A stretch of 64,000 bases of DNA, taken from assembly GCF_029846175.1 (NCBI RefSeq), contig NZ_JARWAC010000016.1, positions 1 through 64,000 of the forward strand, in the 5' to 3' direction. This DNA is from Sphaerisporangium sp. TRM90804 (GTDB lineage: Bacteria > Actinomycetota > Actinomycetes > Streptosporangiales > Streptosporangiaceae). Shown here one piece after another: positions 1-13,949 of the stretch. Both the position numbers and the translations under genes were made by a program. The notes beneath the pieces are model-generated. The model saw nothing but the letters and a program-made list of their open reading frames with translations. It did no database searches and was not told the DNA's origin. Position 1 is the first letter of the stretch. Each line of letters begins with the position of its first letter.

Positions 1-84
1 GGACGCGGTGGCCACGAGGCTGCCCTCGGCGCCCAGCGTGACCAGCACCCCGGCCGGGCCGGCGGCCAGCAGGTCGGGCGCGGG
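1..84 (-). CDS. Possible PfkB-family sugar kinase fragment at window edge
   Basis: Read leftwards, about 28 codons to the window edge encode a stretch with the core VLVTLGAEGSL. This strongly resembles the segment found just before the catalytic signature of PfkB/ribokinase/1-phosphofructokinase family kinases. The roughly 170 residues that should precede it are absent: the frame emerges directly from a C/G homopolymer block, in a different frame from the SDR protein on the other side. I therefore read it as the interior of a kinase gene joined artificially or by deletion. The short length leaves a chance match possible. Confidence 0.4.
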
Positions 85-125
85 CCCCCCCCCGGGGGGG
101 CCCCCGGGGGGGGGGGGGGGCCCCC
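82..125. other. C/G homopolymer block, likely assembly or sequencing artefact
   Basis: The block consists of runs of G3, C9, G7, C5, G15 and C5 in succession, with no other base. Nothing like it occurs elsewhere in the window. It separates the near-complete C-terminus of the SDR-fusion protein from a kinase-like reading frame that lacks its N-terminal half, so sequence is probably missing here. Confidence 0.6.
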
Positions 126-1429
126 GCGTCCAGGACGGCCTGGGCCAGCGCGTCCGGGGACGCGAGCGTGGTGTCCGCGGCGTCGAGGCAGGCGACGTGG
201 ACGCCGTAGCCCGCCCACTCGTCGTTCAGGGCCTCGGCCAGCGCCGCCACGGCCGCGCCCGCCGAGGCGTAGACGCCGGTGCGGCCCGCGCCGGGGGTGG
301 GGGACGAGGCGCGCAGCAGCAGGTGGCCGCCGCTGTCGCGCAGGTGGGGGAGCGCCGCCCTGGCGACGGTGAGCGGGCCGAGGTGGTGCACCGCGATGAC
401 CTCCCGCAGCGCGTCGTCGTCCGCGTCCGCCAGCGTGAGCGGCCGCTCGGGGCCGCCGACGCCGACCACGACGTCGATGCGGCCCCTCTCCTTGGCCACC
501 CGCCCGAGGGCCTCGGCGACGGCCCCGGCGTCCTCCACCCGCACCTCGTCGCGCGAGCGGGAGAACCAGTGGACGGCGGCGCCGTACTCCCCGGCCAGCT
601 CGGCGAGGTGGGACAGCTCGGGGCCGTCGCCGAAGGCCACCACGGTCTTCCCGGCGAGCGCCCGGTGGCGGGCCTCGGCGTCCGCGTGGCGGGTCGCGGG
701 GGCGAGCCGCAGGAGCCGGTCGGCGATGTGCAGGTCGACCGGGTGGGTGACCTTCATGTTGTGCTCGCTGCCCGGCACGATGTGGATCGGCACGCCGGGG
801 AGGTACCGCAGCACGACGCCGCAGTCGTCGGTGGCCTGGCGCTCGGCGAAGTCAGGGTCGGCGAACGCGCGCTCGTACGCCTCGCGGATCACCGACAGGC
901 GGAAGCACTGCGGGGTCTGGGCACGGCGCAGCAGTGTGCGGTCGGGGATGTCGCGGACGGTCTCGCCCTCGGGGCCGGTGTCGACGACCAGCAGCGTGTC
1001 GGACGAGGGGATGGCCACCTCGACGGCGACGTGGGTTCGCAGAGCCTGGACGCACGCGGTGATCGTGCTGGGCTCCACCAGCGGGCGGACGGCGTCGTGC
1101 AGCAGCACGTCGCACTCCTCGGCGCCCAGCGCCTCCAGCGCCCGCCAGGTGGACTCGGTGCGCGTCGCGCCGCCCTCCACGACCCGGCTGACCTTGCCGA
1201 ACCCGCCCCGCTCGACGATGCGCTCCACCTCGCCGGTGTATCCGGCCGCCATCAGCACGAGGATCTCGTCGACCTCGGCCGCCTCCTGGAACACGGCGAG
1301 CGTGTGCTCGATGACCGCCCGCCCGGCGATCTTGAGCAGCTGCTTGGGCGTCCCCTCCCCGACGCGCCGCCCGACCCCTCCGGCGAGCACCACGGCGACG
1401 GTGCGCAGACGCGGTTCCGCTACCCCCAC
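126..1429 (-). CDS. Bifunctional IspD-like cytidylyltransferase / SDR-type protein
   Basis: The N-terminal domain (about residues 10-240) is an IspD/TarI-family cytidylyltransferase. It has the nucleotide-binding LAGGVGRR loop (15-22) with Lys29, HDAVRP at 111-116, RAQTPQ near 170 and KVTHPVDL near 226. The C-terminal domain (about 258-436) has a short-chain dehydrogenase fold. IspD-SDR fusions include Haemophilus Acs1/Bcs1, which makes CDP-ribitol from ribulose 5-phosphate, so a CDP-polyol role is the best guess. The SDR half looks degenerate: the YxxxK motif reads Y387-ASA-G391, and the glycine-rich loop is atypical. The GTG start is chosen for the GGAGGG ribosome site about 8 bases upstream. 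The 3' end runs into the homopolymer block, so the true stop is unknown. It diverges from the CDP-alcohol transferase gene. Confidence 0.8.
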
Positions 1430-1815
1430 GATGAATTCCCTCCCGCGACACCCATGAACCCAACGCCCGACCCTACCCACCCCCACCCCCTTCCCACCCC
1501 CGACGCCCAGCCCCCGCCCCGGCGCCGGGTGGGAGCATCCGTGGCGGGGTGGCGGGGTGGCGGGGTGGCGGGGTGGCGGGGTGGCGGGTGTCCCCTGTGC
1601 CCCTTCGTGCTGCTCCCAAGCCCTCGTTGTTCGGTGGTGCCGTCGGGGCCGGGGGATGGGTGGGGGGATGTCGGGATATGGGATTGGGAAACGGCGCGGG
1701 TGGGGATGCGGGGGGCTTGGGACGGGGGAATGACGTGCGGTGATGGGATTGCGGGGTGGTGATCACTCGGTTACGTTGCGGGGTGACGATACCGGTCGCG
1801 GAAGGAGACCTCCGG
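1430..1815. other. Divergent intergenic region, G-rich
   Basis: This is the spacer between the leftward IspD-SDR gene and the rightward CDP-alcohol transferase gene. It holds a ribosome site for the leftward gene (about 1440-1445), a GTGGCGGG-type octamer repeat, a C-rich stretch (1480-1530), a G-rich stretch (1640-1760) and a ribosome site for the rightward gene (about 1802-1807). No convincing small gene was seen. Promoters must lie here, but no hexamer pair stands out. Confidence 0.5.
1542..1590. repeat. Tandem 8-bp G-rich repeat
   Basis: About six head-to-tail copies of GGCGGGGT occur on the + strand. The runs of three and four G could form G-quadruplexes in DNA or in a long 5' leader of the rightward gene. 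Copy number is likely to vary between strains. Confidence 0.75.
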
Positions 1816-3504
1816 TTGCCTGAATCCGCGTATCCGCCGCCGGTGCGGCCCTCCGCGAGGACGGCCGCCGTGCCATGGGAGCCGCAGGGGAGTCCGGCGC
1901 GTCCCGCCCCGGCGGCGGCCGCGGTCGTGCTCGCGACGACCGCGGCCACCCGCCTCGCCTGCGCGGAGGGGACGCTGGCGCTACGGCTCGCCGGGCAGCT
2001 TCTCACCCTGCCGGTGCGTGAGGTCCATGTGGTCGACAGGTCGGCCCGAGAGCCCGAGTCGCCCGGGACGACGGCCGGCGCCGGGCCGCGCCCCCTGGCG
2101 GCCGGGGACGGGTACGGCTCGGGGGCCGGTCCGCGGTCGCCGGGCGGTGCGCCTGACGGAACGGCTGTGGTCCCGCCGGGCTCGGCCGGTGACGGGCCTG
2201 GGTCGTCGCTCGTGCCTGGCCGGCATGGTGCGGGGGGTGAGGTCGTGGGGTGGCCCGGAGGGTCTCGGGTCACCGTGAGTGAAGGGCTCGCGGGGGATCT
2301 GCGGGCGGTGGCTTCGGTGGCGAGGGCGGGGCCGGGGCCGGTGGCGGTGTTGCCGGGCGATCTGGTGGCGCACACCGAGGCGCTCGCGTTGCTGCTGGCC
2401 GATCCGGCGCACGGCACCGGGGCGCTGGTGTCGCCGGGGGCCGAGCGCGCGGGCCCGTTGACGCCGCCGGTGCGGGTGGAGCGCGGGCGGGTCGTGGCCG
2501 CGGGCAACTCCTTCCACACGGTCAGCGCCCCCAACGCCTGCTTCCGGGGCGTCCTGCACGTCGGCGAGGCCGACCTGGCCGGGCTCGCCGAGGTCGCGGA
2601 CGAGCTCGCCAACCTCGCCCAGGCCCGGCGGCTCGGCGACGTACGCGACGCCGAGGCCGCCGACCTGCTGCTCGCGGGGCTCGTCCGCGTCGGCGTTCCC
2701 GTGCGCGCCGCCCCGCTCGGCGGGCTGCACTGCGGCCGGGTCTCGGGGCAGCTCGGCGCGGACGCCGCCGTCGCGAAGCTGGCCGAGGTCGACCAGGATC
2801 GCGCCCGTCTGGCGGCGTCGGTCAAGTCCGACGACGGCTGGGTGGCCACCTACCTGGTCAGCTCCTGGTCACGCCACCTGGTGCGGCCGGCGGCGCGGCT
2901 CGGCCTCACGCCGAACGCGGTCACCGGCCTCTCGGTGGCCCTGGCCGGGCTGGCCGCCGTCGCGTTCTCGGCGGGCGAGCGTCGCGCGCAGGTCGCCGGG
3001 GCGGCGCTGCTCTACCTGTCCTTCGTGCTCGACTGCGTGGACGGCCAGCTGGCCCGCTACACCCGCGCCTTCTCGCCGATCGGCGCCTGGCTGGACGCCA
3101 CCTTCGCCCGGGTGAAGGAGTACCTCGTCTACGCCGGCCTCGCCGTCGGCTACGCCGGAGGCCTCGACCGCGGGCCCACGGGCCCGGAGAGCATCTGGGC
3201 GCTGGCCGTCGCCGCCATGCTGGTCCAGTCGATGCGCCACATGATCGACTTCTCCTACGCCGGGGCGCGGGCCGGCAAGCCCGGCTCCGAACGCCTCTGG
3301 GACCGTCCGGGCGACGCGCCGAGCGTCCTCGCCGGGATGCCCTGGCTCAGGAAGGTCGTGGTGCTGCCCATCGGGGAGCGCATGCTGCTGATCGCGGTGA
3401 CCGCCGCGCTCTACGACGCCCGGGTGACGTTCATCGCGCTGCTCGCCTGGGGCGGGCTCGCGACGCTCTACATGCTCGCCGGCCGGATCGCGAGGTCGTT
3501 CTGA
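1816..3504 (+). CDS. CDP-alcohol phosphatidyltransferase-like protein with N-terminal nucleotidyltransferase-like region
   Basis: The C-terminal third (about 340-560) is a polytopic CDP-alcohol phosphotransferase domain with the signature DCVDGQLAR at 406-414, then G424 and D428. The last Asp of the consensus DxxDGxxAR..GxxxDxxxD is Ala432 here. That residue is the proposed catalytic base in characterised members, so the mechanism or activity may differ. The N-terminal half contains a segment (AVLPGDLVAHTEAL) like a degenerate nucleotidyltransferase core, recalling the archaeal-type fusion of inositol-phosphate cytidylyltransferase and DIPP synthase. The TTG start follows GAAGGAG by about 8 bases; an in-frame GTG at 1756 is less likely. 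The next gene starts 2 bases after the stop, indicating translational coupling. Confidence 0.75.
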   Translation: MPESAYPPPVRPSARTAAVPWEPQGSPARPAPAAAAVVLATTAATRLACAEGTLALRLAGQLLTLPVREVHVVDRSAREPESPGTTAGAGPRPLAAGDGYGSGAGPRSPGGAPDGTAVVPPGSAGDGPGSSLVPGRHGAGGEVVGWPGGSRVTVSEGLAGDLRAVASVARAGPGPVAVLPGDLVAHTEALALLLADPAHGTGALVSPGAERAGPLTPPVRVERGRVVAAGNSFHTVSAPNACFRGVLHVGEADLAGLAEVADELANLAQARRLGDVRDAEAADLLLAGLVRVGVPVRAAPLGGLHCGRVSGQLGADAAVAKLAEVDQDRARLAASVKSDDGWVATYLVSSWSRHLVRPAARLGLTPNAVTGLSVALAGLAAVAFSAGERRAQVAGAALLYLSFVLDCVDGQLARYTRAFSPIGAWLDATFARVKEYLVYAGLAVGYAGGLDRGPTGPESIWALAVAAMLVQSMRHMIDFSYAGARAGKPGSERLWDRPGDAPSVLAGMPWLRKVVVLPIGERMLLIAVTAALYDARVTFIALLAWGGLATLYMLAGRIARSF

Positions 3505-3506
3505 CG

Positions 3507-4127
3507 ATGATCGTCCACATGACGCCGGTTCCCCGCAGCTTCGTGGTCACCTACCGCGACGACGGCGTGCTGTCGCGCGGCATGGGCCTGCTGGTGGCGG
3601 GCCAGCTCCCGCCGCTGCCGCCCGCCCTCGCCGGGGCGTTCGTCACCGGCGTCATGCTGTTCCTGGGCGTCGCCGGCGACGACGGCCCGTCGGTCTTCGC
3701 GCCGGCCGTGGCGCTGCTGCTCGCCGGCCCCGGCAGCTCCCACGCGCACGACGGCAGGCTCGACTGGCTCGTGCCGCCGATCCTGCGCGTCACCGAGTAC
3801 GGCTTCATCACCTGCGTGGGCTTCGCCTGGGACGTTCCCAAGCCCCTGCTGTTCGGCCTGCTCGGGGCGATGCTCTTCCACCACTACGACGTGGTCTACC
3901 GCTGCCGCCAGCACGTCTACCCGCCGTCGTGGCTGGCCTCGGCGGGCCTGGGCTGGGAGGGCCGCATGCTGCTGGTGGCCATGGGCGCCCTGCTGGACGT
4001 GGTCACCCCGGTCTTCGCGCTCGCGGCGCTCTACCTGACCGCCCTGTTCGGCTGGGAGAGCCTGACCTGCTGGCTGGCCGCCCCCACGTCGGGCGTCGAG
4101 GCGGCCGACCTCGGCGGCCACGACTGA
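3507..4127 (+). CDS. Membrane protein partner of the CDP-alcohol transferase (DUF5941-like)
   Basis: This 206-residue protein has several hydrophobic segments (about 28-55, 70-85, 115-135 and 165-190) and conserved-looking HHYD and YRDDG motifs. From memory, similar sequence forms the C-terminal part of larger actinobacterial proteins that also contain the CDP-alcohol transferase domain (DUF5941). Here it is a separate gene starting 2 bases after the transferase stop, so the two products probably act as one membrane unit. The ATG at 3507 has no strong ribosome site of its own, which fits coupling. An in-frame ATG at 3519 is an alternative. The catalytic role is unknown. Confidence 0.6.
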   Translation: MIVHMTPVPRSFVVTYRDDGVLSRGMGLLVAGQLPPLPPALAGAFVTGVMLFLGVAGDDGPSVFAPAVALLLAGPGSSHAHDGRLDWLVPPILRVTEYGFITCVGFAWDVPKPLLFGLLGAMLFHHYDVVYRCRQHVYPPSWLASAGLGWEGRMLLVAMGALLDVVTPVFALAALYLTALFGWESLTCWLAAPTSGVEAADLGGHD

Positions 4128-4197
4128 CCGGTTCCGCCCCGTATCTCCGCCCGCACAACCAATAAAAGACCTCATAAAGGTCGAAGTGAACTCCGGA

Positions 4198-4229
4198 TTA
4201 CACGATCAGCACGTCAAGGCAACTAACCT
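4198..4229 (+). promoter_or_regulatory. Putative promoter of the cytidylyltransferase-G1PDH operon
   Basis: In an unusually AT-rich 110-base spacer, TTACAC (4198-4203) and TAACCT (4224-4229) resemble -35 and -10 elements, but the spacing is long (20 bases). A small inverted repeat, GACCT..AGGTC, lies just upstream at about 4169-4183. Confidence 0.35.
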
Positions 4230-4270
4230 TTGCCCCTACGGAGAACTCTGCTCTGACTGAGGAGTGCACG

Positions 4271-5005
4271 TTGCTGGGAATGGTGCTGGCCGCCGGGGCC
4301 GGACGACGCCTGCGGCCGTACACCGACACGCTGCCCAAGGCGCTGGTGCCGGTCGACGGGGAGACCACGATCCTCGACATCGCCCTGCGCAATCTGGCGG
4401 CGGTCGATCTGCGGGACGTCGTCGTCATCGTGGGGTACGCCGCCCAGGCGGTCCACGACCGCAAGGCCGAGCTCGAACGGCGGCACGACGTCAAGCTGAC
4501 CCTCGTGCACAACGACAAGGCCGAGGAGTGGAACAACGCCTACTCCCTGTGGTGCGCGCGCGACCACTTCGCCGAGGGCGCGCTGCTGGTCAACGGCGAC
4601 ACCGTGCACCCGGTGTCGGTCGAGCGCACGCTGCTGGACGCCCCGGCGACCACCGACCTCCTGCTCGCCGTCGACGACGTCAAGTCGCTGGCCGACGAGG
4701 AGATGAAGGTCGTCCTCGACGAGACCGGCCACCTGAAGCGCATCACCAAGCTCATGGACCCCGCCGAGGCCTTCGGCGAGTACATCGGCGCCACCCTGAT
4801 CCGCCCGGGCGCCGCTCGGCGGCTCGCCGACGCGCTCCAGGCCACCTTCGAGCGCGACCCCCAGCTCTACTACGAGGACGGCTACGGCGAGATGGTCGCC
4901 CGGGGCGAGCAGATCGCCGTCGCGCCCATCGGCAAGGTCGACTGGGTCGAGGTCGACAACCACCAGGACCTCGCGAAGGCCCGGGAGATCGCGTGCCACT
5001 ACTAG
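4271..5005 (+). CDS. LicC-like CTP:phosphoalcohol cytidylyltransferase
   Basis: The 244-residue GT-A-fold nucleotidyltransferase has the LAAGAGRRLRP loop at 6-16 followed by LPKAL (21-25), the metal-binding NGD at 108-110 and NNAYSLW at 88-94. The last motif is typical of LicC/phosphocholine cytidylyltransferase relatives. It probably activates a small phosphorylated alcohol or polyol with CTP. The neighbouring glycerol-1-phosphate dehydrogenase-like enzyme and CDP-alcohol transferase suggest the substrate is made, activated and transferred within this operon. The TTG start is supported by GAGGAG 8 bases upstream. Substrate assignment is inference. Confidence 0.8.
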   Translation: MLGMVLAAGAGRRLRPYTDTLPKALVPVDGETTILDIALRNLAAVDLRDVVVIVGYAAQAVHDRKAELERRHDVKLTLVHNDKAEEWNNAYSLWCARDHFAEGALLVNGDTVHPVSVERTLLDAPATTDLLLAVDDVKSLADEEMKVVLDETGHLKRITKLMDPAEAFGEYIGATLIRPGAARRLADALQATFERDPQLYYEDGYGEMVARGEQIAVAPIGKVDWVEVDNHQDLAKAREIACHY

Positions 5006-5054
5006 CCGCGCCCCGCCGGCAGGCGCAGGCCACGACCACGGCCCGGGAGGACGC

Positions 5055-6113
5055 ATGCCGCTTCTAGCACGAATGCTCATGGCCCCGCTGACCGTCGAGG
5101 TCCGCAGGGGCGCGGTGGCCCAGCTCGGCGGCCTGCTCGCCGACAGCCGGGTGGCGACGTCCGGCAGGGTCGCCGTCGCCGTCGGCTCAGGCCAGGGCGA
5201 CCACATCTCCGACCTCATCGCGCCCACGCTCGGCGAGGCCCGGGTGTTCCGCGTCGCCGACGGGTCGGTGGACGCCGCGGTGTCCCTGGGGGCCGATCTC
5301 CGCAAGGGCGCCTACGAGGCCGTGGTGGGCATCGGCGGCGGCAAGACGATCGACGTCACCAAGTACGCCGCGTCGCTCGCCGGCATCCCCATGGTGGCCG
5401 TGGCCACCAACCTGTCGCACGACGGCATCTGCTCGCCGGTCTCCTCGCTGGAGCACGAGGGCGGCAAGGGCTCGTTCGGCGTGCCGATGCCGCTGGCCAT
5501 CCTCGTCGACCTCGACTTCGTGCACGGCGCGCCGCCCGCGCTCGTGCGGGCCGGCATCGGCGACGTCGTCAGCAACCTGTCGGCCATCGAGGACTGGCAG
5601 CTCGGCAACGTCGAGCGCGGCGAGCCCATCGACGGCCTGGCGGTCTCGATGGCCAGAACCAGCGCCGAGGCCGTGCTGGGCCGGGCCGACTCCATCGAGT
5701 CGGACGCCTTCCTCACGGTGCTGGCCGAGGCGCTGATCCTCTCGGGCATGTCCATGGTCGTCGCCGGGTCCTCCCGTCCCGGAAGCGGTGGAGATCATGA
5801 GATCCTTCATGCCGTGGACCAGCTCTACCCCGGCACCTCCAACCACGGCGAGCTCGCCGGCATCGGCGCGGCCTTCTGCTTCTTCCTTCGCGAGGACGAG
5901 GAGCGGCTGGCCGTGGTGGCCGACTGCCTGCGCGCGCACAAGCTTCCGGTCGTCCCGGGTGACCTGGGCCTGACCAACGAGCAGTTCGCCGCCGCGGTCG
6001 ACCTGGCGCCGTCCACCCGGCCGGGGCGCTACACGATTCTTGAGCACCTTCGGCTGTCCGAGGCCGAGGTGCGCGACCGGGTGGAGGAATATGTCCGGGC
6101 CATCGGTCATTGA
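5055..6113 (+). CDS. sn-Glycerol-1-phosphate dehydrogenase-like (AraM/EgsA family) enzyme
   Basis: The 352-residue protein belongs to the dehydroquinate-synthase/iron-alcohol-dehydrogenase superfamily. It shows the NAD(P)-binding GGGK at 94-97, THDG-equivalent SHDGICSP at 121-128, and metal ligands Asp170, His248 and His264 placed as in archaeal and Bacillus AraM G1P dehydrogenases (GDHEILH, NHGE). The expected reaction is reduction of dihydroxyacetone phosphate, or a related ketose phosphate, to a polyol phosphate. It lies between a cytidylyltransferase and a CDP-alcohol transferase, which makes a CDP-polyol pathway likely. The ATG start follows GGAGG. The next gene overlaps its 3' end by 23 bases. 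Confidence 0.8.
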   Translation: MPLLARMLMAPLTVEVRRGAVAQLGGLLADSRVATSGRVAVAVGSGQGDHISDLIAPTLGEARVFRVADGSVDAAVSLGADLRKGAYEAVVGIGGGKTIDVTKYAASLAGIPMVAVATNLSHDGICSPVSSLEHEGGKGSFGVPMPLAILVDLDFVHGAPPALVRAGIGDVVSNLSAIEDWQLGNVERGEPIDGLAVSMARTSAEAVLGRADSIESDAFLTVLAEALILSGMSMVVAGSSRPGSGGDHEILHAVDQLYPGTSNHGELAGIGAAFCFFLREDEERLAVVADCLRAHKLPVVPGDLGLTNEQFAAAVDLAPSTRPGRYTILEHLRLSEAEVRDRVEEYVRAIGH

Positions 6114-6858
6114 GCTGCGGGCTGTCGCCCAGCCGCAGACGACCGTCGAACGCAAGTCCGGCGAGCACTGGGCGGGCCTGCTCTACATGCGCAAGCTCTC
6201 GATCTACGTGACGTGGGCGCTGGCCCGCACGCCGCTCACGCCCAACCAGGTCACCGGCCTGATGATCGCCTGCGGGCTGCTGGCCGGCGCGGTGCTCGCG
6301 CTGCCGGGCCTGTGGGCGGCGTTCGCCGCGGCCGTGCTCGTGCAGGTCTACCTGCTGCTCGACTGCTCCGACGGCGAGCTGGCCAGGTGGACCGGCCGCA
6401 CCTCGATCACCGGCGTCTACCTCGACCGCGTGGGCCACTACTTCGCCGAGGCCGCGCTGCTGATCGGGCTCGGCTTCCGGGCCTCTGAGACCACGCCCGA
6501 CTGGTTCACCGTGCTCGGCTTCGCCGCCGCGCTCGGCGCCATCCTGATCAAGTCGGAGACCGACCTGGTGGACGTCGCCCGCGCCCGCTCCGGCCTGCCG
6601 GCCTCGGAGGAGGCCCAGGCGGAGCGGTTCCGCTCCCCGCGGCTCGGCGCGGCGCGCAAGGTCGCGGCGGCGCTGCGGTTCCACCGGGTGATCCAGGCCG
6701 TGGAGCTGTCGCTGATCGCGCTGGCCGCCGCGGTGTGGGACTTCGTGGCGGGCGGCCTGACGGCGACGCAGGTGCTCACCGTCGCGTGCGCCGTCTTCGC
6801 CGGCCTGCAGACCGTCCTGCACCTCGTGAGCATTCTCGGATCCAGGCGCCTCGGGTGA
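6091..6858 (+). CDS. CDP-alcohol phosphatidyltransferase family membrane protein
   Basis: The 255-residue polytopic protein has the family signature DCSDGELAR at 91-99, G108 and D112. As in the first transferase of the cluster, the final Asp is missing: position 116 is His. In characterised enzymes this Asp is the catalytic base, so this may be a His-variant subfamily. It probably transfers a phosphoalcohol from a CDP-alcohol made by the preceding genes to a lipid or polyol acceptor in the membrane. The ATG start sits inside the end of the dehydrogenase gene with GGAGG directly upstream, so the two are co-translated. Confidence 0.75.
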   Translation: MSGPSVIELRAVAQPQTTVERKSGEHWAGLLYMRKLSIYVTWALARTPLTPNQVTGLMIACGLLAGAVLALPGLWAAFAAAVLVQVYLLLDCSDGELARWTGRTSITGVYLDRVGHYFAEAALLIGLGFRASETTPDWFTVLGFAAALGAILIKSETDLVDVARARSGLPASEEAQAERFRSPRLGAARKVAAALRFHRVIQAVELSLIALAAAVWDFVAGGLTATQVLTVACAVFAGLQTVLHLVSILGSRRLG

Positions 6859-7048
6859 ACCGTGCGAGCATTCCGCCGCGTATCTGAGTCAACACCGGTC
6901 ACGTGGGAACGCCTACTGTTCGGTGAAGGTTCGCCGAGAGTTCCGATACGCTTATTTGGCCGTCAGCAAGTAGGGTTCCGAATGCCCGCTCAACCAGATT
7001 CGGTGATCATGTCTACATGCGTTCTCCATGCGTCGAGGCGATGACGCG

Positions 7049-7927
7049 TTGAAGATCTCATGTGTCATCCTCACCATGGGCAACCGGGTCGCCGAGCTTG
7101 AGCGCGCGATCGAGTCCGCTCTGACACAGACCGACGGCGACGTCGAGGTGGTGGTGGTCGGCAACGGCGCCGACGTCCCGCCCGTCGCCGACGTGCCGCG
7201 CAGCGGCGCGTCCAGCGTCCGCGCGGTGCGCATCCCGACGAACGTCGGCATCCCCGAGGGGCGCAACCACGGCGTGCGCGAATGCACGGGCGACGTCGTG
7301 CTGTTCCTCGACGACGACGGCTGGTACGCCGACGACAAGGTGGCCGCGCACGTGCGCGAGCGGTTCTCCAGCGAGCCCGACCTCGCGGTGATCTCCTTCC
7401 GCGTCATGGATCCCGAGGGCGGCGCCGGCCAGCGCCGGCACGTGCCCCGGCTGCGCGCCGGCGACCCGCAGCGCTCCTCCCCGGTGACCACCTTCCTCGG
7501 CGGCGCGTGCGCGATCAGGCGCTCGGCGTACCTGCAGGTGGGCGGCCTTCCCGGCCGGTTCTTCTACGCCCACGAGGAGACCGACCTCGCCTGGCGGCTC
7601 CTCGGCGAGGGCTACCGCATCGAGTACGACGCCGACGCCGTGATGTACCACCCCCAGGTGCCGCCGACGCGTCACGCCGACTTCTACCGGCTCAACGCCC
7701 GCAACCGGGTGTGGCTGGCGCGCCGCAACCTCCCCTGGCCGCTGGCGGTCTTCTACCTGCTCGACTGGGCGGTGCTGACGCTGGTGCGCGAGCGGTCGTG
7801 GGACGCCATCAAGGCGTGGGCGCGCGGCTTCGCCGAAGGGCTCAGGGAGCCCGCGGGCGAGCGCCGCCCCATGGCGTGGCGCACGGCCTGGCGCATGCTC
7901 AGGCTGGGACGCCCGCCCATCGTGTGA
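7049..7927 (+). CDS. Glycosyltransferase family 2
   Basis: This 292-residue GT-A enzyme starts with KISCVILTMGNR, has the metal-binding FLDDDGW near residue 93 and the acceptor-side HEETDLAWR near 177. The C-terminus is amphipathic. It follows the CDP-alcohol cluster after a 190-base spacer and may glycosylate its product. The TTG start is chosen because GAGGCG lies 8 bases upstream; an ATG at 7028 lacks a ribosome site. The spacer contains AT-rich promoter-like sequence (TACTGT near 6910, TACGCT near 6947). It converges with the decarboxylase-family gene, with 9 bases between stops. Confidence 0.8.
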   Translation: MKISCVILTMGNRVAELERAIESALTQTDGDVEVVVVGNGADVPPVADVPRSGASSVRAVRIPTNVGIPEGRNHGVRECTGDVVLFLDDDGWYADDKVAAHVRERFSSEPDLAVISFRVMDPEGGAGQRRHVPRLRAGDPQRSSPVTTFLGGACAIRRSAYLQVGGLPGRFFYAHEETDLAWRLLGEGYRIEYDADAVMYHPQVPPTRHADFYRLNARNRVWLARRNLPWPLAVFYLLDWAVLTLVRERSWDAIKAWARGFAEGLREPAGERRPMAWRTAWRMLRLGRPPIV

Positions 7928-7936
7928 GGCGGCCGC

Positions 7937-8683
7937 TCAACGCCGGTGGCAGGGCATGCTGCGCGGCTCCTCGAAGCTCAGCGCCGCGCCGGACACCGTG
8001 ACCGTCGCCAGGGCTCGCTTGGGCAGGCCGAGCTCGCTGAGCTCCTTGGCGATCGGGTGGTTGCCCAGCCTGACCAGCGCCCCGCCGGGCCGCGTCCGCA
8101 GGGCGTGCGGCCTGATGTGCCAGCGCGTGCGCCGGGTGACCCCGTCGAGGTGGGAGTAGGCGTCCATCGGGGTGCGGGCCGCCACCACCGGGACGCCGGG
8201 GCGGATGAGCAGGTCGAGCACCAGGCGGTCGTCCTTGCGCAGCAGGCACCGCTTGTAGGGCGACGACAGCCGAAGGTCGATCTGCGCCAGCTCCTTGGGG
8301 AAGCCCCAGATGGCGCGGCCGGCCTCCATGGTGAACCGCTGGTCGACGGGCAGCCAGTGCACGAACATGCCCGAGACGGCCGCGAGCACGTCGCGCAGGC
8401 CCGACACGGGGCCGCGGGTACGCCGGCGGCGGTCGTCCGGCGGGCGCACGCTGAACGCCACCCCGAACTCGTTGTAGGAGCCGAGGTCGCCCTCGTCGTA
8501 CCGGATGAACGCCAGCGTGCAGAGCGCCTTGCCCGGCAGCACCTCGGCGACGTCGAGGTCGCAGTAGGCGAGCACCGCCCGGACGGCGTCCGCGCGCACG
8601 AGGTAGGTGGCGGCGCACGCCGTGGCGTCCCGGATCTCCACCGGCATGGCGACCGTCCGCCCCTGGATGTGATGGCTGGCCAT
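7937..8683 (-). CDS. Acetoacetate decarboxylase family protein
   Basis: The 248-residue protein has the acetoacetate-decarboxylase fold signature: IWGFPKELA near residue 135 with a Lys-Glu pair at the position of the Schiff-base lysine, and the preceding NEFGVAF segment. Family members decarboxylate or hydrate beta-keto and alpha-keto acids, and many act in secondary metabolism. Nothing nearby fixes a substrate. ATG at 8683 is taken as the start without a clear ribosome site; ATG at 8647 (MPVEIRD) is possible. Confidence 0.7.
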   Translation of the reverse strand: MASHHIQGRTVAMPVEIRDATACAATYLVRADAVRAVLAYCDLDVAEVLPGKALCTLAFIRYDEGDLGSYNEFGVAFSVRPPDDRRRRTRGPVSGLRDVLAAVSGMFVHWLPVDQRFTMEAGRAIWGFPKELAQIDLRLSSPYKRCLLRKDDRLVLDLLIRPGVPVVAARTPMDAYSHLDGVTRRTRWHIRPHALRTRPGGALVRLGNHPIAKELSELGLPKRALATVTVSGAALSFEEPRSMPCHRR

Positions 8684-8755
8684 GAGGTCAAGTAGACCAA
8701 TCAGCGGAGCGGGGCGCCAGCCGTGGAAGGGGCCGGGATGCCCGGCGGGGCGGGG

Positions 8756-9871
8756 TCAGGCGGGCACCACGCGCCGGGTGACCGTGGCCGGGACCCGGGT
8801 CGCCCACGCCTCCAGCGCGCTGACGAAGGCGGGGGCGTGGTCGGGCCAGTGGTAGTGGCCGCGCGCCTCGGCGTACCCCCGGGCGCCCATCGCCGCCCGC
8901 CGCTCGGGGTCGTCCCGCAGCCGCAGGACGGCCCGCTCGGCCGCGTCCACGTCCCCGAAGGGCACGATCACGCCGCAGCCGGCGCGCCCGACCGCCGAGG
9001 CGGCCATCGGCAGCGGGGTGCTCACCACCGGCACGCCCCTGGCCATGTACTCCATGACCTTGGTGGGCAGCGACCGGCGGTAGTTCGGCAGGTCGTGCAG
9101 GAGCGAGAGGCCGGCGAGCGCGCCCTCGGCCATGCGCAGGGCGTGGTCGTTGGGGACGTAGCCGAACCAGTCGAGCACTCCCTCGCGCTGCGCGTCGCGC
9201 AGCGCCGGGCGCACCCGGGCGTCGGCGCCGCCGATGAGGTCGAGCCTGATGCCGCTGGGCCGCAGCCGGCGGGCCAGCTCGATCATCTCCAGCGCGCCCC
9301 TGGCCTGCGACAGGTGGCCGACGTACACCACGCGGCTCTCGCCGGGGGCGGGCGGCGGCGTGGCGGGCACGTAGGTGGTGTTGGGCACCACCGGGTGGTC
9401 GCCGGTGAAGCGCTCGCGGTACGCGGGCTCGGCGAGGATCAGGTGAGTGCGGCGCGCGGCGCGGTCCTCGACCCGCTGGACCAGGGGGGGCAGCATCCGG
9501 CGGGCCGGCTCGGGAAGGTAGTCCTTGGTGTCCAGCGAGGCGGCGGTGTCCTCGTGGACGTCCCACACCGTCGGCGGACGGCGGCGCGGCAGGGCGAACA
9601 GCAGCTCGATGTCATGGACGAGCAGCAGGTCGGCGTCCTGGACACCCTTCTTGATCGCCGCGCGGGCGGCGCGCAGCGCGTGCCTGCGCCGCAGCCCGAC
9701 GGCACGCGGCACGTCGATGGCGCGGATCTCCGCCGGCGGGGTGACGTTGCAGTGGGTGAACGGCGCGATGTACGTGACCTCGTGGCCCGCCGCCAGCAGC
9801 GCCCGGATCTGCCGGTGCATGATGCGGGCGTCCTCCGGGTGGTGGACGATCGTGCCGACACATACCTTCAT
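8756..9871 (-). CDS. Glycosyltransferase family 4
   Basis: The 371-residue GT-B enzyme has an N-terminal Rossmann domain starting KVCVGTIVHHPEDARI and VWDVHED near 127. The C-terminal nucleotide-sugar domain contains VVYVGHLSQARGALEMI near 205 and PTKVMEYMARGVPVVSTP near 290. The EX7E-type region is represented by the last motif. It is likely cytosolic and membrane-associated, adding a sugar to a lipid-linked intermediate. It lies downstream of the acyltransferase gene on the same strand with a 100-base gap. Confidence 0.8.
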   Translation of the reverse strand: MKVCVGTIVHHPEDARIMHRQIRALLAAGHEVTYIAPFTHCNVTPPAEIRAIDVPRAVGLRRRHALRAARAAIKKGVQDADLLLVHDIELLFALPRRRPPTVWDVHEDTAASLDTKDYLPEPARRMLPPLVQRVEDRAARRTHLILAEPAYRERFTGDHPVVPNTTYVPATPPPAPGESRVVYVGHLSQARGALEMIELARRLRPSGIRLDLIGGADARVRPALRDAQREGVLDWFGYVPNDHALRMAEGALAGLSLLHDLPNYRRSLPTKVMEYMARGVPVVSTPLPMAASAVGRAGCGVIVPFGDVDAAERAVLRLRDDPERRAAMGARGYAEARGHYHWPDHAPAFVSALEAWATRVPATVTRRVVPA

Positions 9872-9971
9872 GTGTCGATGCTGAGCGCGGTTCCCTTACT
9901 GCCCGGGTGCTTACCGTGAATCGCGGGGGAAATGCCGCTGAACATCGCGTCGCGGGCGGCGCCGTGCGGGC

Positions 9972-11852
9972 CTAGGACGACGGTCTGCGGTAGAGCCAGC
10001 TCAGGCGCGGCTCCAGCAGCCACTTGAAGGCCGTGCGGGTCTCCGGCAGGCACAGGACGATCGCGAGGGCGAAGCAGCTGCTCGTGATCGCCATGACGCC
10101 CAGCGGCCCGTACAGCCAGGGCTGGCTCAGCCAGCCCATCTCCTTGGCGATGTACACGGGCACGCCGTGCAGCAGGTAGCAGTACAGCGTGCGGGTGCCG
10201 AGGTCGGAGAACCAGGTGCTGCGCCGCGGGACCAGCGCCATGACGGCCATCGAGACGGCGAGCGCCGCGACCAGCAGGCCGAGCCGCACGCCCATGCCCA
10301 TCCACCACGACAGCTTCAGCTCGGCGTAGGCGTCCTTGTAGTAGATGGGGTCGAGCGGCACCTCGGGCGCGATGAGGATCGCCACGGCGGCGGCGCCCGC
10401 CAGCACGCCCACCGAGAGGATCTTGATCCAGGCGCGGTTGAGCAGGTCGAAGTGGTGCGGCTGGAGCAGGAGCCCGAGCACGAAGAACGGCATGAGGCCG
10501 AAGAAGCGGTCCATGCTGAAGTCGCCGGGGAGGTCGGACAGGCCGGCCAGCAGGTAGACGGCGACCGCGATCGGCAGGGGATAGCGCATGCGCCGCCACA
10601 CCGGCGTGGACAGCCGCCACAGCAGCAGGGCGAGCAGGTACCAGTTCAGCCAGGCCGGGTCGATGATCGTCAGGCTCCACTTGTGGCCGAAGGCGAAGCG
10701 GAGCACCGCGTAGCCGAGCTCCACGATCACGTACGGCACCAGGAAGGTGTCGACCAGCTTGTTCGTCTTGGCGTTGGAGTTCCAGAAGTTCCTGCTGAGG
10801 TAGCCGCTGATCACGACGAACAGCGGCATGTGGAACACGTAGATGAACAGGTAGGCGGCGCGCGAGGAGTCGGCGGCGAGGGTGGGCACCAGAGAGTGCC
10901 CGGTGACCACCAGCGCGATGAGGACGAACTTGACGTTGTCGAGGTAGGGCTCGCGCGGGCGCTTCGCCGCGGGCGCGGCCTGCGCCTCGGGGGCCTCCTC
11001 GGGCTGCGGCCAGGGCTGCCCCCAGGCGCGCTCGCCGGTCTGGACGCCGCCACGCGGCGACTCGGTGTCGGGCCACCCGCCCTGCGTGGACGGGGCCGGC
11101 TGTGGCGGGCGGCGCTCCCAGTAGGAGAAGCCGTCGGAGGCGACGCCCGGTGGCGCCTGCTCGGGCGCGACGGCGCCCTCGGCGGGGCGCGTCGCGTGGC
11201 CGCCGCCCCAGGCGGGCACGGACGGGGCGACGGCGTGGGCCGCGGACCGCCCGGCGTAGGGCGTGGGGTCGTCGGCGTACGGCTCCGCGTGGGGGACGGC
11301 CTGCCCGGCGAGAGGCGTGTACGGGGCCGGGGGCGTCTCCTCGTCGGCCGAGGGCCAGCGCGGGGCCGCCTCGCCCGGCGAGGGCCAGCGCGGGGCCGCC
11401 TCGTCGGTCGAGGGCCGGCGCGGGGCCGCCTCGCCCGGCGAGGGCCGGCGTGGCGGCGCCTCGTCGTAGCCCTGAGGCTGCCGATCGTCCCACCTGGGGG
11501 CGTCGAAGGTGAAGGTCTCGGGGTCGTCGTCAGCGGGGGCGGGGGCGCTCTTGGAGCGGTGCCGCGGCGCGGGGTGGTCGTGGGTGACGTGCTGGGTGGG
11601 GTCGGCCGCCGGCCACAGGGACCCCGGGGACCTCTCGGCCGTTCTCGGTCGGTGACGGTCCCACGCGCCGGTCGGCGGCGCCGCGTAGTCGGGAACGGGC
11701 CACCGGGCCGCCGGGGCCTCCTCCGGACCGGTCTCCGTGTCGGTCGCGGCGGACTCGGGAGCCTGCTCCTCCTCGGCCGCGCCGGACTCCTCGTCGGGGA
11801 CGTCGTCGGAGCGCGGGGCCGGTACGTGGAAAGAGGATCGCGTGTCACTCAC
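9972..11852 (-). CDS. Membrane acyltransferase (acyltransferase-3 family) with long disordered N-terminus
   Basis: The 626-residue protein has about 305 disordered residues rich in Pro, Ala, Glu and Asp, then a ten-helix acyltransferase-3 domain. That domain begins YLDNVKFVLIALVVTGHSL, containing the conserved catalytic-type His, and includes FIYVFHMPLFVVISGYLSR. Such proteins move acetyl or succinyl groups onto exported polysaccharides or peptidoglycan. The cytoplasmic tail includes four 10-residue repeats (APRWPSPGEA type). The GTG start MSDTRSS is assigned by frame. The neighbours are a glycosyltransferase downstream and an LCP ligase upstream, which fits glycopolymer decoration. Confidence 0.8.
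   Translation of the reverse strand: MSDTRSSFHVPAPRSDDVPDEESGAAEEEQAPESAATDTETGPEEAPAARWPVPDYAAPPTGAWDRHRPRTAERSPGSLWPAADPTQHVTHDHPAPRHRSKSAPAPADDDPETFTFDAPRWDDRQPQGYDEAPPRRPSPGEAAPRRPSTDEAAPRWPSPGEAAPRWPSADEETPPAPYTPLAGQAVPHAEPYADDPTPYAGRSAAHAVAPSVPAWGGGHATRPAEGAVAPEQAPPGVASDGFSYWERRPPQPAPSTQGGWPDTESPRGGVQTGERAWGQPWPQPEEAPEAQAAPAAKRPREPYLDNVKFVLIALVVTGHSLVPTLAADSSRAAYLFIYVFHMPLFVVISGYLSRNFWNSNAKTNKLVDTFLVPYVIVELGYAVLRFAFGHKWSLTIIDPAWLNWYLLALLLWRLSTPVWRRMRYPLPIAVAVYLLAGLSDLPGDFSMDRFFGLMPFFVLGLLLQPHHFDLLNRAWIKILSVGVLAGAAAVAILIAPEVPLDPIYYKDAYAELKLSWWMGMGVRLGLLVAALAVSMAVMALVPRRSTWFSDLGTRTLYCYLLHGVPVYIAKEMGWLSQPWLYGPLGVMAITSSCFALAIVLCLPETRTAFKWLLEPRLSWLYRRPSS
11341..11460. repeat. Four 30-bp tandem repeats inside the acyltransferase gene
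   Basis: Units begin at 11341, 11371, 11401 and 11431 and differ by one to a few bases. They encode the repeated decapeptide APRRPSPGEA/APRWPSADEE in the disordered tail. The length is a whole number of codons, so copy changes would keep the frame. Confidence 0.85.
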
Positions 11853-12161: not shown

Positions 12162-13949
12162 TCAGGTGCTGCAGACGTCGGTCTTGGAGTCGACGACGCG
12201 CGCGCTCTCGGGGATGGTGACCGGCACCTTGATGCCCTTGAAGTCGAGCCCGATGACCAGCTGGACCACCGGGCCGTCGGCCGGCGTGCCGGTGCCCTCG
12301 CCGGAGTCCGCGGTGGGAGAGCCGGACGCGATGGGCGTGAACGGCTGGACCGCCCCGGGCTTCACCTTGCCCGAGGCCGGCGTGACCTTGTTCACCAGCT
12401 TGGCCGCCAGCGGAGCGGCGTAGTCGGCGCCGTCGGTGTCCTTCTTGCCGAACAGCACCGTGGTCTTCGGCCGGCTGGTGCCGTCGGCCGGTCGCGCGTC
12501 GCCCACCTCGGTGATCGTGAAGCCCTGGGCGGCCAGCGCGGCGGCGGCCTCCTTGGCCTTGCCGTCGATGGTGGTGCCGTTGAGCACCTGGAGCCGCACC
12601 TGCGCGGGCTTGATCGCCGGCTTGGACGGCGCCGAGGAGGACGTGGCGGCGCTCGGCTTGGCCGACGGGGTGACCTCGATGTCGTTGCGGAGCGACTCGA
12701 ACATGCGCGCGGCGTCCGGCTGCTTGAACTGCACCCGGTTGGCGTTCCCGGGGTACGCCTCCCACGGGACCGTCACGAACTTCACGCCCTTGGCCGTGAG
12801 GCTGCGGGCGCTCTGCGCGATCTCGATCAGCGTGTCCACGTCGAGGTTCGGGTCCATCACGACCGACTGGGCGGCCGCGGTGACGAGGCTGACCAGCTTG
12901 CCCGGGTCGGTCAGGGTGTCGCCGCTGGTCGCCTTCTTCGCCACCTGGGACAGGAAGATCTGCTGGCGCTTGATGCGGCTGATGTCGCTGCCGTCGCCCA
13001 GCGCCTTGCGGGCGCGCACGTACGCGAGGGCGGTCTCGCCCTTCACGATCTGCTTGCCGGCCGGCAGCGTGAGCTTGGCCTCCTTGTCCTGCACGGCGGT
13101 GGGCACGCAGATCTGGATGCCGCCGAGGGCGTCCACGATGTTCTTGAAGCCGGTGAAGTCGACCTTGATGTAGTGGTCGATGCGGATGTTGGTGGTGGCC
13201 TCGATCGTGTTGATCGTGCACCCCATGCCGCCCTCGTTGAAGGCCGAGTTGATCATGTCGAGGCGGGGAGGGATCGCCACCTTGGTCTGGGCGTTCCTGC
13301 ACGCGGGGATCTGCACCATCGAGTCGCGGGGGAAACTGATCAGCGTCGCCTTGTCGCGGTTCGGGGAGATGTGCATGAGGATGATCGTGTCGGTGCGCTC
13401 GCCCAGCCCCTGCATGTGCTGGCCGTACCTCTTGTTGTCGCCCTCGCGGGTGTCGGAGCCGACCAGCAGGACGTTGAGCGCGCCGGTCGCGTTGACCGGG
13501 CGGTTGGCGTTGAGGTCGTCGCTGACGTCGTCGGTGCGCAGGTTGCCCAGGACGTTGCGGTAGAGGGTGTAGCCCGTGAGCGCGAGCAGCACCAGGAGGC
13601 TGGTGAGCGCGATGCTGACCCAGGCCATGAGCCGCATGCGGCCGTTGCCGTTCCGGCCAGGCCCGGAGGGCTCGCGGCGCCGGGGCCCGGGCTCCTCGGG
13701 CGGAGGCGGCGGGGGCGTCTCAGGGCCGCCGCGGCGGCGGGGAGGCCGGTCGTCCACCACATGGTGCTCGCGCCGCTCGGGGGGCGGCGGGGCTGCCGGC
13801 GCGCCCGTCTGACGGCGTGAACGCCCGCCGTCGCCCGCGGGGGGACGGTCGGGTGGCTCCTGCGCTCGGCGGCGGCTCGCCCTTCGACCGGGGGGTTCGG
13901 GCTCCGCCCGGGGGTCGCGTACCGCGCCGAGGTGTCGGTGCTCGCTCAT
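12162..13949 (-). CDS. LytR-CpsA-Psr (LCP) family glycopolymer ligase with LytR_C domain
   Basis: The 595-residue protein has a Pro/Arg-rich cytoplasmic tail (1-105), one membrane helix (about 106-128), an extracellular LCP domain and a LytR_C-type domain (about 455-530, starting VRLQVLNGT). The LCP domain has LLVGSDTR at 161-168, RTDTIILMHI at 185-194 and SFPRDSMV at 205-212, and covers to about 330. LCP enzymes transfer lipid-linked glycopolymers to peptidoglycan using conserved Arg and Asp residues, which are present. The related mycobacterial locus also has an LCP gene near manC and whiB2. ATG 13949 is chosen because the protein begins there sensibly; the open frame extends far upstream but overlaps the next gene. 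Confidence 0.9.
   Translation of the reverse strand: MSEHRHLGAVRDPRAEPEPPGRRASRRRAQEPPDRPPAGDGGRSRRQTGAPAAPPPPERREHHVVDDRPPRRRGGPETPPPPPPEEPGPRRREPSGPGRNGNGRMRLMAWVSIALTSLLVLLALTGYTLYRNVLGNLRTDDVSDDLNANRPVNATGALNVLLVGSDTREGDNKRYGQHMQGLGERTDTIILMHISPNRDKATLISFPRDSMVQIPACRNAQTKVAIPPRLDMINSAFNEGGMGCTINTIEATTNIRIDHYIKVDFTGFKNIVDALGGIQICVPTAVQDKEAKLTLPAGKQIVKGETALAYVRARKALGDGSDISRIKRQQIFLSQVAKKATSGDTLTDPGKLVSLVTAAAQSVVMDPNLDVDTLIEIAQSARSLTAKGVKFVTVPWEAYPGNANRVQFKQPDAARMFESLRNDIEVTPSAKPSAATSSSAPSKPAIKPAQVRLQVLNGTTIDGKAKEAAAALAAQGFTITEVGDARPADGTSRPKTTVLFGKKDTDGADYAAPLAAKLVNKVTPASGKVKPGAVQPFTPIASGSPTADSGEGTGTPADGPVVQLVIGLDFKGIKVPVTIPESARVVDSKTDVCST

What the first reader, a model, noticed from the sequence alone, without database searches (positions are those of the whole stretch)
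1..7927. Candidate undescribed CDP-polyol/glycerol-1-phosphate pathway cluster
In one 8-kb block lie an IspD-SDR fusion, a LicC-like cytidylyltransferase, an archaeal-style sn-glycerol-1-phosphate dehydrogenase-like enzyme, two CDP-alcohol phosphotransferase-like proteins (one with a degenerate N-terminal nucleotidyltransferase) and a GT2. Together they supply every step to make a polyol phosphate, activate it with CTP, transfer it in the membrane and glycosylate it. Known families support each step; the combined product is inference. Candidates are a polyol-phosphate teichoic acid, or a phospholipid with glycerol 1-phosphate stereochemistry in a bacterium.
Basis: partly seen in the sequence, partly recalled or inferred. 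Interest (0 to 1): 0.8.

Follow-up and report, generated by a model that had tools for sequence, protein, structure and literature searches.

The report
Mirror-image glycerol route for teichoic acids
The gene block looks like a widely conserved actinobacterial cell-wall locus in which an archaeal-type enzyme may supply the mirror-image form of glycerol phosphate for teichoic-acid-like wall polymers, a route we did not find described for bacteria.

Summary
C lies with D in 62 of 64 further loci from ten family codes, with TagG- or TagH-like exporter genes in 52 of 64. Of 394 genomes, 100 have strong D; 94 of those have strong TagF-type PF04464. TagD at 100 bits or more occurs in 30, none with D. 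I read C-D as a CDP-glycerol supply from DHAP via sn-glycerol-1-phosphate, feeding teichoic-acid-type polymers. The G1P-phospholipid half is not (no GGGP synthase found in this genome), and A's degenerate nucleotidyltransferase is unproven. E lacks the fourth catalytic Asp in 129 of 129 copies. Caveats: no exporter lies beside the cluster in the window's family, weak TagD-like matches remain, and no substrate is measured. A 2026 synteny paper already notes the Streptomyces neighbourhood; the passages I saw propose no pathway.

The parts
2..1453 (-). IspD-SDR fusion (cut by the contig end at base 1; start codon uncertain); likely pentitol/ribitol-phosphate cytidylyltransferase plus reductase, by resemblance to Bcs1-type fusions (recalled)
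   Evidence: Pfam IspD 170 bits and adh_short 49 bits; the genome has another IspD on contig C34; found in 78 of 80 close loci
1756..3504 (+). A: membrane CDP-alcohol phosphotransferase with a roughly 350-aa N-terminal region of unproven kind
   Evidence: PF01066 31 bits; solved relatives AF2299 4o6m and IPCT-DIPPS 4mnd; start uncertain; fourth motif Asp is Ala here (codon 3106-3108)
3507..4127 (+). B: DUF5941 protein, fused to A's relative in L130
   Evidence: PF19365 94 bits; fusion
4271..5005 (+). C: LicC-like cytidylyltransferase, proposed CTP:sn-glycerol-1-phosphate cytidylyltransferase
   Evidence: PF00483 48 bits; 1jyk best solved relative; no close paralogue in the genome (next match E 7e-6)
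5055..6113 (+). D: sn-glycerol-1-phosphate dehydrogenase-like enzyme
   Evidence: NF002022 234 bits, below its cut-off 413; 4rgq and 4rfl G1P dehydrogenases; motif residues conserved
6091..6858 (+). E: CDP-alcohol phosphotransferase without the fourth motif Asp; overlaps D
   Evidence: PF01066 34 bits; D1-D3 invariant and D4 His/Ala
7028..7927 (+). F: GT2 glycosyltransferase
   Evidence: PF00535 72 bits; 86 positions at least 98% identical in 98 length-filtered sequences
12162..13904 (-). LCP (LytR-CpsA-Psr) ligase, probable wall-polymer attachment enzyme in the neighbourhood (start uncertain)
   Evidence: PF03816 169 bits

Best explanation
This is a conserved actinobacterial wall-glycopolymer (teichoic-acid-type) locus. 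D reduces dihydroxyacetone phosphate to sn-glycerol-1-phosphate. C couples that to CTP, giving CDP-glycerol of the opposite hand from the TagD product. Membrane enzymes E and A (with B) transfer phosphoglycerol, or in A's case perhaps the pentitol phosphate supplied by IspD-SDR, onto lipid-linked acceptors. F adds a sugar, PF04464 enzymes elongate, a TagGH-type exporter moves the chain out and LCP enzymes attach it to peptidoglycan. Shown by sequence: gene content, order, co-occurrence and conserved motifs. Inferred: every substrate, the stereochemistry, the acceptors of E and A, and the order of steps.
For: C with D in 62 of 64 loci and 80 of 80 close loci; same strand in 142 of 142 pairs, within 400 nt in 133. 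Partners vary while C-D stays: E in 48 of 64, PF04464 in 8, LicD-like in 3, TagG or TagH in 52, some candidate phosphopolyol transferase in 59. The PF04464 protein near C-D in L119 scores higher as glycerol-type TarF (257 bits) than ribitol-type TarL (96 bits), both below cut-off. Across 394 genomes: strong D in 100, strong PF04464 in 94 of those against 63 of the other 294, TagD at 100 bits or more in 30, none with D. Both routes occur within family f26 and genus g56, never in one genome. LCP in 78 and a divergent PF04464 in 55 of 80 close loci. Motif residues of D conserved in 134-135 of 135. No PcrB match in the genome.
Against: C's substrate is unmeasured; a COG1213 relative, CpgD, makes CDP-glycerate and showed no product with glycerol-1-phosphate (PMC12275187, passages). 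D is below the curated cut-off. Near the cluster in the window's family TagG matches 0 of 80 and TagH 7 of 80, all weak (46-62 bits); this genome's best TagG match is weak (66 bits, 26%). TagH of L119 and L130 scores below cut-off and the galactan-exporter model scores nearly as high (191 vs 169, 187 vs 158 bits). At E 0.001, 70 of the 100 genomes with D have a TIGR01518 match, up to 68 bits (hand count), so a divergent G3P cytidylyltransferase is possible. Co-occurrence is clumped by ancestry (41 of the 100 are one family). 42 genomes with strong PF04464 have neither route. 5 of 64 loci show no candidate transferase.
Confidence: 0.6

Rival explanations
1. Same wall locus, but C activates another phosphate (phosphoglycerate, an inositol or pentitol phosphate, or phosphocholine), and D is a relative that reduces a different keto-phosphate.
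For: COG1213 enzymes have varied substrates (PMC12275187 passages); D is below its model's cut-off; the IspD-SDR neighbour suggests a second polyol.
Against: TarF-like PF04464 near C-D in L119 and the zero overlap with strong TagD point to glycerol; D's motif residues match G1P dehydrogenases.
Confidence: 0.2
2. C-D supply a G1P-based phospholipid (archaeal-like headgroup or backbone) made by E.
For: D resembles archaeal G1P dehydrogenase; E and A match, below cut-off, archaetidylinositol-phosphate and inositol-phosphate transferase models.
Against: No GGGP synthase match in this genome; exporter and PF04464 association fits a polymer better than a lipid.
Confidence: 0.08
3. E (with C-D) makes a soluble diester such as glycerophosphoinositol, like di-inositol-phosphate synthase.
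For: E and C both match the bifunctional inositol-phosphate cytidylyltransferase/DIPP synthase model.
Against: Scores are far below its cut-off (47 and 49 vs 580 bits); linkage to TagGH-like genes, PF04464 and LCP is unexplained.
Confidence: 0.05
4. E is a non-catalytic partner (pseudoenzyme) of A; only A transfers.
For: E lacks the fourth Asp in 129 of 129 copies.
Against: D1-D3 and the DG..AR core are invariant in 117 of 117; A itself lacks D4 in this genome; E occurs in loci where no A was found (L140, and the short contigs L122, L131, L134), though A could lie elsewhere in those genomes.
Confidence: 0.2

Closest known systems
Wall teichoic acid (tag/tar) pathway of Bacillus and Staphylococcus
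   Same: PF04464 enzymes, TagGH-like exporter genes and LCP ligases recur with C-D
   Different: Strong TagD is never found with strong D; C-D belong to unrelated families, with predicted opposite stereochemistry; CDP-alcohol phosphotransferases E and A take part; no exporter found next to the cluster in the window's family
AraM G1P dehydrogenase and archaea-type ether lipid of Bacillus subtilis (PMC5059525, PMC8262930, passages; the name PcrB for its next enzyme is recalled)
   Same: Bacterial G1P dehydrogenase family; actinobacterial members of the EgsA/AraM tree are mentioned in PMC5059525
   Different: No PcrB match here; the constant partner is a cytidylyltransferase
CpgD phosphoglycerate cytidylyltransferase of Caulobacter (PMC12275187, passages)
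   Same: COG1213-type cytidylyltransferase serving a phosphoglycerate headgroup
   Different: CpgD makes CDP-glycerate and showed no product with glycerol-1-phosphate; I compared no CpgD sequence
AF2299 and IPCT-DIPPS CDP-alcohol phosphotransferases
   Same: Closest solved relatives of E and A
   Different: E lacks D4; A's N-terminal region not shown to be a nucleotidyltransferase
Streptomyces araM-tagG-tagH-CDP-alcohol phosphotransferase-GT2 synteny (PMC13118837, 2026, passages)
   Same: Same neighbourhood, attributed there to teichoic acid biosynthesis
   Different: No pathway, stereochemistry or TagD exclusion in the passages I saw

Membership tests
G1P dehydrogenase (EgsA/AraM) | Reaches curated model cut-off (NF002022, 413 bits) | tested here: not met
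   234 bits; in the control only 3 of 14 genomes pass the cut-off
G1P dehydrogenase (EgsA/AraM) | Metal/catalytic residues (Asp in GD..SN, His in H-E, His in HG; roles recalled) | tested here: met
   D170 in 134 of 135, H248 and H264 in 135 of 135 length-filtered sequences; aligned to 4rgq
G1P dehydrogenase (EgsA/AraM) | Makes G1P from DHAP | not testable with these tools
   needs assay
Glycerol-phosphate cytidylyltransferase of TagD type | Match to TIGR01518 | tested here: not met
   C hits NTP_transferase families and TIGR01518 is not among its 25 best NCBIfam hits; the genome's best TIGR01518 match is 41 bits on C3
LicC/COG1213-type cytidylyltransferase | NTP-transferase family with LicC as near relative | tested here: met
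   PF00483/PF12804 above cut-off; 1jyk E 4e-12
LicC/COG1213-type cytidylyltransferase | CTP and G1P as substrates | not testable with these tools
   needs assay
CDP-alcohol phosphotransferase (E) | Four-Asp motif D1-D4 | tested here: not met
   D1-D3 invariant, D4 His 64 or Ala 65 of 129; PF01066 above cut-off
CDP-alcohol phosphotransferase (A) | Four-Asp motif D1-D4 | tested here: not met
   Met in 125 of 126 copies with a readable motif; the window copy alone has Ala at D4; 7 further hits showed no motif
Bcs1-type ribitol-phosphate cytidylyltransferase/reductase (recalled) | IspD-like plus SDR domains, with a separate housekeeping IspD | tested here: met
   substrate not tested; no Bcs1 sequence compared; gene cut at the contig end
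Wall teichoic acid locus | TagGH-type exporter with the biosynthetic genes | tested here: inconclusive
   TagG or TagH in 52 of 64 further loci; TagG 0 of 80 and TagH 7 of 80 (46-62 bits) in the close loci
Wall teichoic acid locus | PF04464 polymerase and LCP ligase in the genome | tested here: met
   two PF04464 genes elsewhere; LCP in window
Archaeal-type ether lipid pathway | GGGP synthase (PcrB family) | tested here: not met
   no match in genome (assembly in 86 contigs, 98.9% complete)

The most novel reading that the evidence does not exclude
Streptomyces and many other actinobacteria make CDP-sn-1-glycerol with a dedicated archaeal-type G1P dehydrogenase and a LicC-like G1P cytidylyltransferase, and build wall/lipoteichoic acids of mirror-image hand in the cytoplasm. 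This would answer how actinobacteria without LtaS make lipoteichoic-acid-like polymers. E would be a new class of CDP-alcohol phosphotransferase that has dropped the general base because its acceptor is already a phosphate or is activated otherwise (for example polyprenyl phosphate).
Probability: 0.3. Interest if true: 0.85.

Novelty: new variant of a known kind. Interest (0 to 1): 0.62.

Why it matters
In Bacillus subtilis wall teichoic acid is sn-glycerol-3-phosphate and lipoteichoic acid sn-glycerol-1-phosphate (PMC7086022, abstract). [quoted passage not shown] fulgidus enzyme that prefers G1P unidentified (passages). PMC3196553 (2011) says sequenced actinobacteria lack clear LtaS orthologues, yet Streptomyces hygroscopicus has polyglycerolphosphate LTA very close to its wall teichoic acid (passages); against this, PMC12286996 names an annotated LtaS homologue in Bifidobacterium (passages), and I ran no LtaS search. 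A C-D route would give one simple, testable answer, name a candidate G1P cytidylyltransferase family, and put archaeal-handed glycerol phosphate into the walls of a major antibiotic-producing group.

Tried and rejected
Idea that E and F replace TagA/TagB: tested with TagA (PF03808) in 394 genomes. By hand count it is over the cut-off in 30 of the 100 genomes with D (one more is weak) and in 6 of the 30 with TagD, so it does not discriminate; dropped. Degenerate nucleotidyltransferase in A: profile against C 0.04% probability, and the A1 profile found only KdsB at E 0.65 in its N-terminal part; left open. DUF5941 as a degenerate CDP-alcohol phosphotransferase (from a visual likeness): 0.46% against E and 0.14% against A's domain; positive control A's domain against E 98.8%, negative control A's N-terminal part against E 0.25%; not supported. 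My first motif tally sorted copies badly by position and is replaced. The counts of A can include cross-hits to E and are not used. Guessed Streptomyces coelicolor locus tags (recalled) gave one irrelevant paper. A review searched for G1P-dehydrogenase residues gave nothing useful (PMC9385802). Paper searches with no hit: DUF5941, Streptosporangium teichoic acid. Of one search's three papers I looked into one (PMC12286996). Two more papers naming CDP-1-Gro were looked into for passages (PMC11666461, PMC8587909): in them it is an in-vitro donor, not a natural bacterial pathway.

Thresholds were chosen after seeing the lists: D at E 1e-90 or better, TagD at 100 bits or more, PF04464 at E 1e-25 or better. 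At TagD's curated cut-off 4 of 394 genomes qualify, none with strong D; at E 0.001, 159 of 394 match, 70 of them among the 100 with D (hand count). In one search E-values were rounded and one stand-in value was used for all 41 genomes of family f1 (all 1e-88 or better). One search used stricter bit cut-offs, hence C 61 vs 62 and F 47 vs 50 of 64. The 64 loci are all 59 genomes with strong D outside f1 (three of them giving two loci each) plus 2 of the 41 f1 genomes; several are on short contigs. For 30 best-scoring places returned, the window included, only 4-kb loci were read: C, D and E in 30 of 30, F in 29, B in 28.
Full report
WHAT IS THERE. The window is bases 1-64000 of contig C9 in an 8.3-Mb genome of 86 contigs. 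Its nearest named relatives by D are seven Sphaerisporangium records (89-92% identity). On the plus strand lie A (1756-3504), B (3507-4127), C (4271-5005), D (5055-6113), E (6091-6858) and F (7028-7927). The IspD-SDR gene is on the minus strand and is cut by the contig end. Families. The genome has a second IspD on contig C34 in a 269-aa frame, so IspD-SDR is a paralogue, most likely for a polyol phosphate; its resemblance to Bcs1-type CDP-ribitol enzymes is recalled, not tested.

CO-OCCURRENCE. In 80 of 80 fetched Streptosporangiaceae loci (the best 80 of 112) A-F are present; IspD-SDR is in 78. In those loci an LCP ligase and a further GT2 are each found in 78 of 80, and relatives of a divergent PF04464 protein in 55 of 80 (three scanned proteins score 23-39 bits against a 22-bit cut-off). 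The window cannot show the upstream part because its contig ends. D in a class-wide draw: 166 of 394 genomes match at E 0.001, of which 100 at 1e-90 or better. I fetched 64 further D loci: all 59 genomes with strong D outside family f1 and two inside it, ten family codes in all. C is there in 62 (61 at stricter scores), E in 48, F in 47-50, TagG in 51, TagH in 52, either in 52, PF04464 in 8, LicD-like in 3, and some candidate phosphopolyol transferase in 59. The five without one are L121, L128, L136, L139 and L164. C and D are on one strand in 142 of 142 pairs, 133 of them within 400 nt, and D overlaps E in 80 of 80 close loci. The constant core is therefore C-D, with interchangeable possible consumers.

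WHAT C-D MAKES. In L119 the possible consumer near C-D is a GT2-PF04464 protein scoring higher as glycerol-type TarF (257 bits, cut-off 550) than ribitol-type TarL (96 bits), with TagG, TagH and a glycerophosphodiesterase. TagH there is nearest the teichoic-acid exporter models (191 bits), but the galactan-exporter model is close behind (169 bits), and all are below cut-off. In family f26 three of three C-D loci carry a LicD-like protein (a partial match, 35 bits over 35 residues in L117), and two of them lie beside GlfT2 and TagG/TagH-like genes. Across 394 genomes, 94 of 100 with strong D have strong PF04464, against 63 of the 294 others; TagD at 100 bits or more occurs in 30, none with strong D. 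Both routes exist inside family f26 and genus g56 but in different genomes. This is the pattern of two alternative CDP-glycerol supplies. It is clumped by ancestry, 42 genomes with strong PF04464 have neither route, and 70 of the 100 genomes with D have a weak TIGR01518 match (up to 68 bits, hand count), so a divergent G3P cytidylyltransferase is not excluded.

D AND C. D's best solved relatives are 3ce9 (labelled glycerol dehydrogenase) and the G1P dehydrogenases 4rgq, 4rfl and 5fb3. Motif Asp and His residues are kept in 134-135 of 135 length-filtered sequences (roles recalled). D scores 234 bits against a 413-bit cut-off, so family naming is likely but not formal. C is LicC-like, without a close paralogue in the genome, and has 85 positions at least 98% identical in 115 sequences. 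The nearest functional warning is CpgD, a COG1213 enzyme that makes CDP-glycerate and showed no product with glycerol-1-phosphate (PMC12275187, passages). With G1P and CTP the product would be CDP-1-glycerol, whose absence from bacteria PMC8262930 regards as likely (passages).

E AND A. PMC6506517 (passages) describes four motif aspartates binding two metals, the fourth being the presumed base. In E the first three are invariant (117 of 117) but the fourth is His in 64 and Ala in 65 of 129 copies, never Asp. In A it is Asp in 125 of 126 copies with a readable motif (7 more hits had none); the single exception is the window's own A (Ala, codon 3106-3108). E is therefore a conserved departure from the superfamily rule. 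A base-free reaction onto a phosphate acceptor is my speculation.

RIVALS. No GGGP synthase match is found in this genome, which argues against an archaeal-type ether lipid. A DIPP-synthase-like solute route has only weak profile support. TagA does not discriminate. In the window's family no TagG and only weak TagH matches (7 of 80) lie near the cluster, and this genome's best TagG match is weak, so export in this species is unresolved; two PF04464 genes lie on contigs C21 and C2.

LITERATURE. I found no paper proposing a G1P-derived CDP-glycerol route for actinobacterial teichoic acids. That rests in an open-licence library, most listed papers being seen only as listings. Seen as passages: PMC13118837 (Streptomyces neighbourhood), PMC3196553 (lipoteichoic acid without LtaS), PMC8262930, PMC12275187, PMC6506517, PMC5059525, PMC11666461, PMC8587909, and PMC12286996 (an annotated LtaS homologue in Bifidobacterium, against a class-wide lack). 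Seen as abstract: PMC7086022 (enantiomer rule).

VERDICT. A real and widespread gene module; a teichoic-acid-type role is likely (my estimate about 0.85), the G1P to CDP-glycerol reading about 0.65, and both together 0.6. No biochemical step is shown.

Noticed in passing
window 3106-3108: A's fourth motif Asp is Ala (GCC) here only, against Asp in 125 other copies: a private loss or a sequencing error.
   Followed up: partly
L130:13865-17311 and similar loci: The Streptomyces-type cluster is followed, same strand, by two squalene/phytoene-synthase genes and an amino-oxidase-family gene (relatives in 37 and 36 of 64 loci); hopanoid-type set (recalled), perhaps co-regulated.
   Followed up: no
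L111, L126: Second D copies in two Streptomyces-type genomes lie near an RNase E/G gene and an Obg-family GTPase gene (Pfam-scanned in L111; L126 holds the same clusters), with PF04464 genes nearby; no C was found in L126.
   Followed up: no
L181:6126-7700 (own genome, contig C45): A paralogue of A (46% identity in the transferase part) lies on another contig, away from C and D.
   Followed up: no
L117, L123, L138: In family f26 C-D sits with a LicD-like protein and relatives of a Pfam-silent protein; in L117 and L123 also beside GlfT2 and exporter-like genes: possible phosphoglycerol decoration of a galactan-like polymer.
   Followed up: partly
L116, L137: In family f37 a different CDP-alcohol phosphotransferase follows D in place of E.
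   Followed up: no
window 7937-11852: Acetoacetate-decarboxylase-like, GT4 and acyltransferase genes follow on the minus strand and recur in 75, 65 and 62 of 80 close loci.
   Followed up: no
L119, L125, L132, L133, L135: A glycerophosphodiester phosphodiesterase gene lies near C-D, a possible polymer-recycling enzyme.
   Followed up: no
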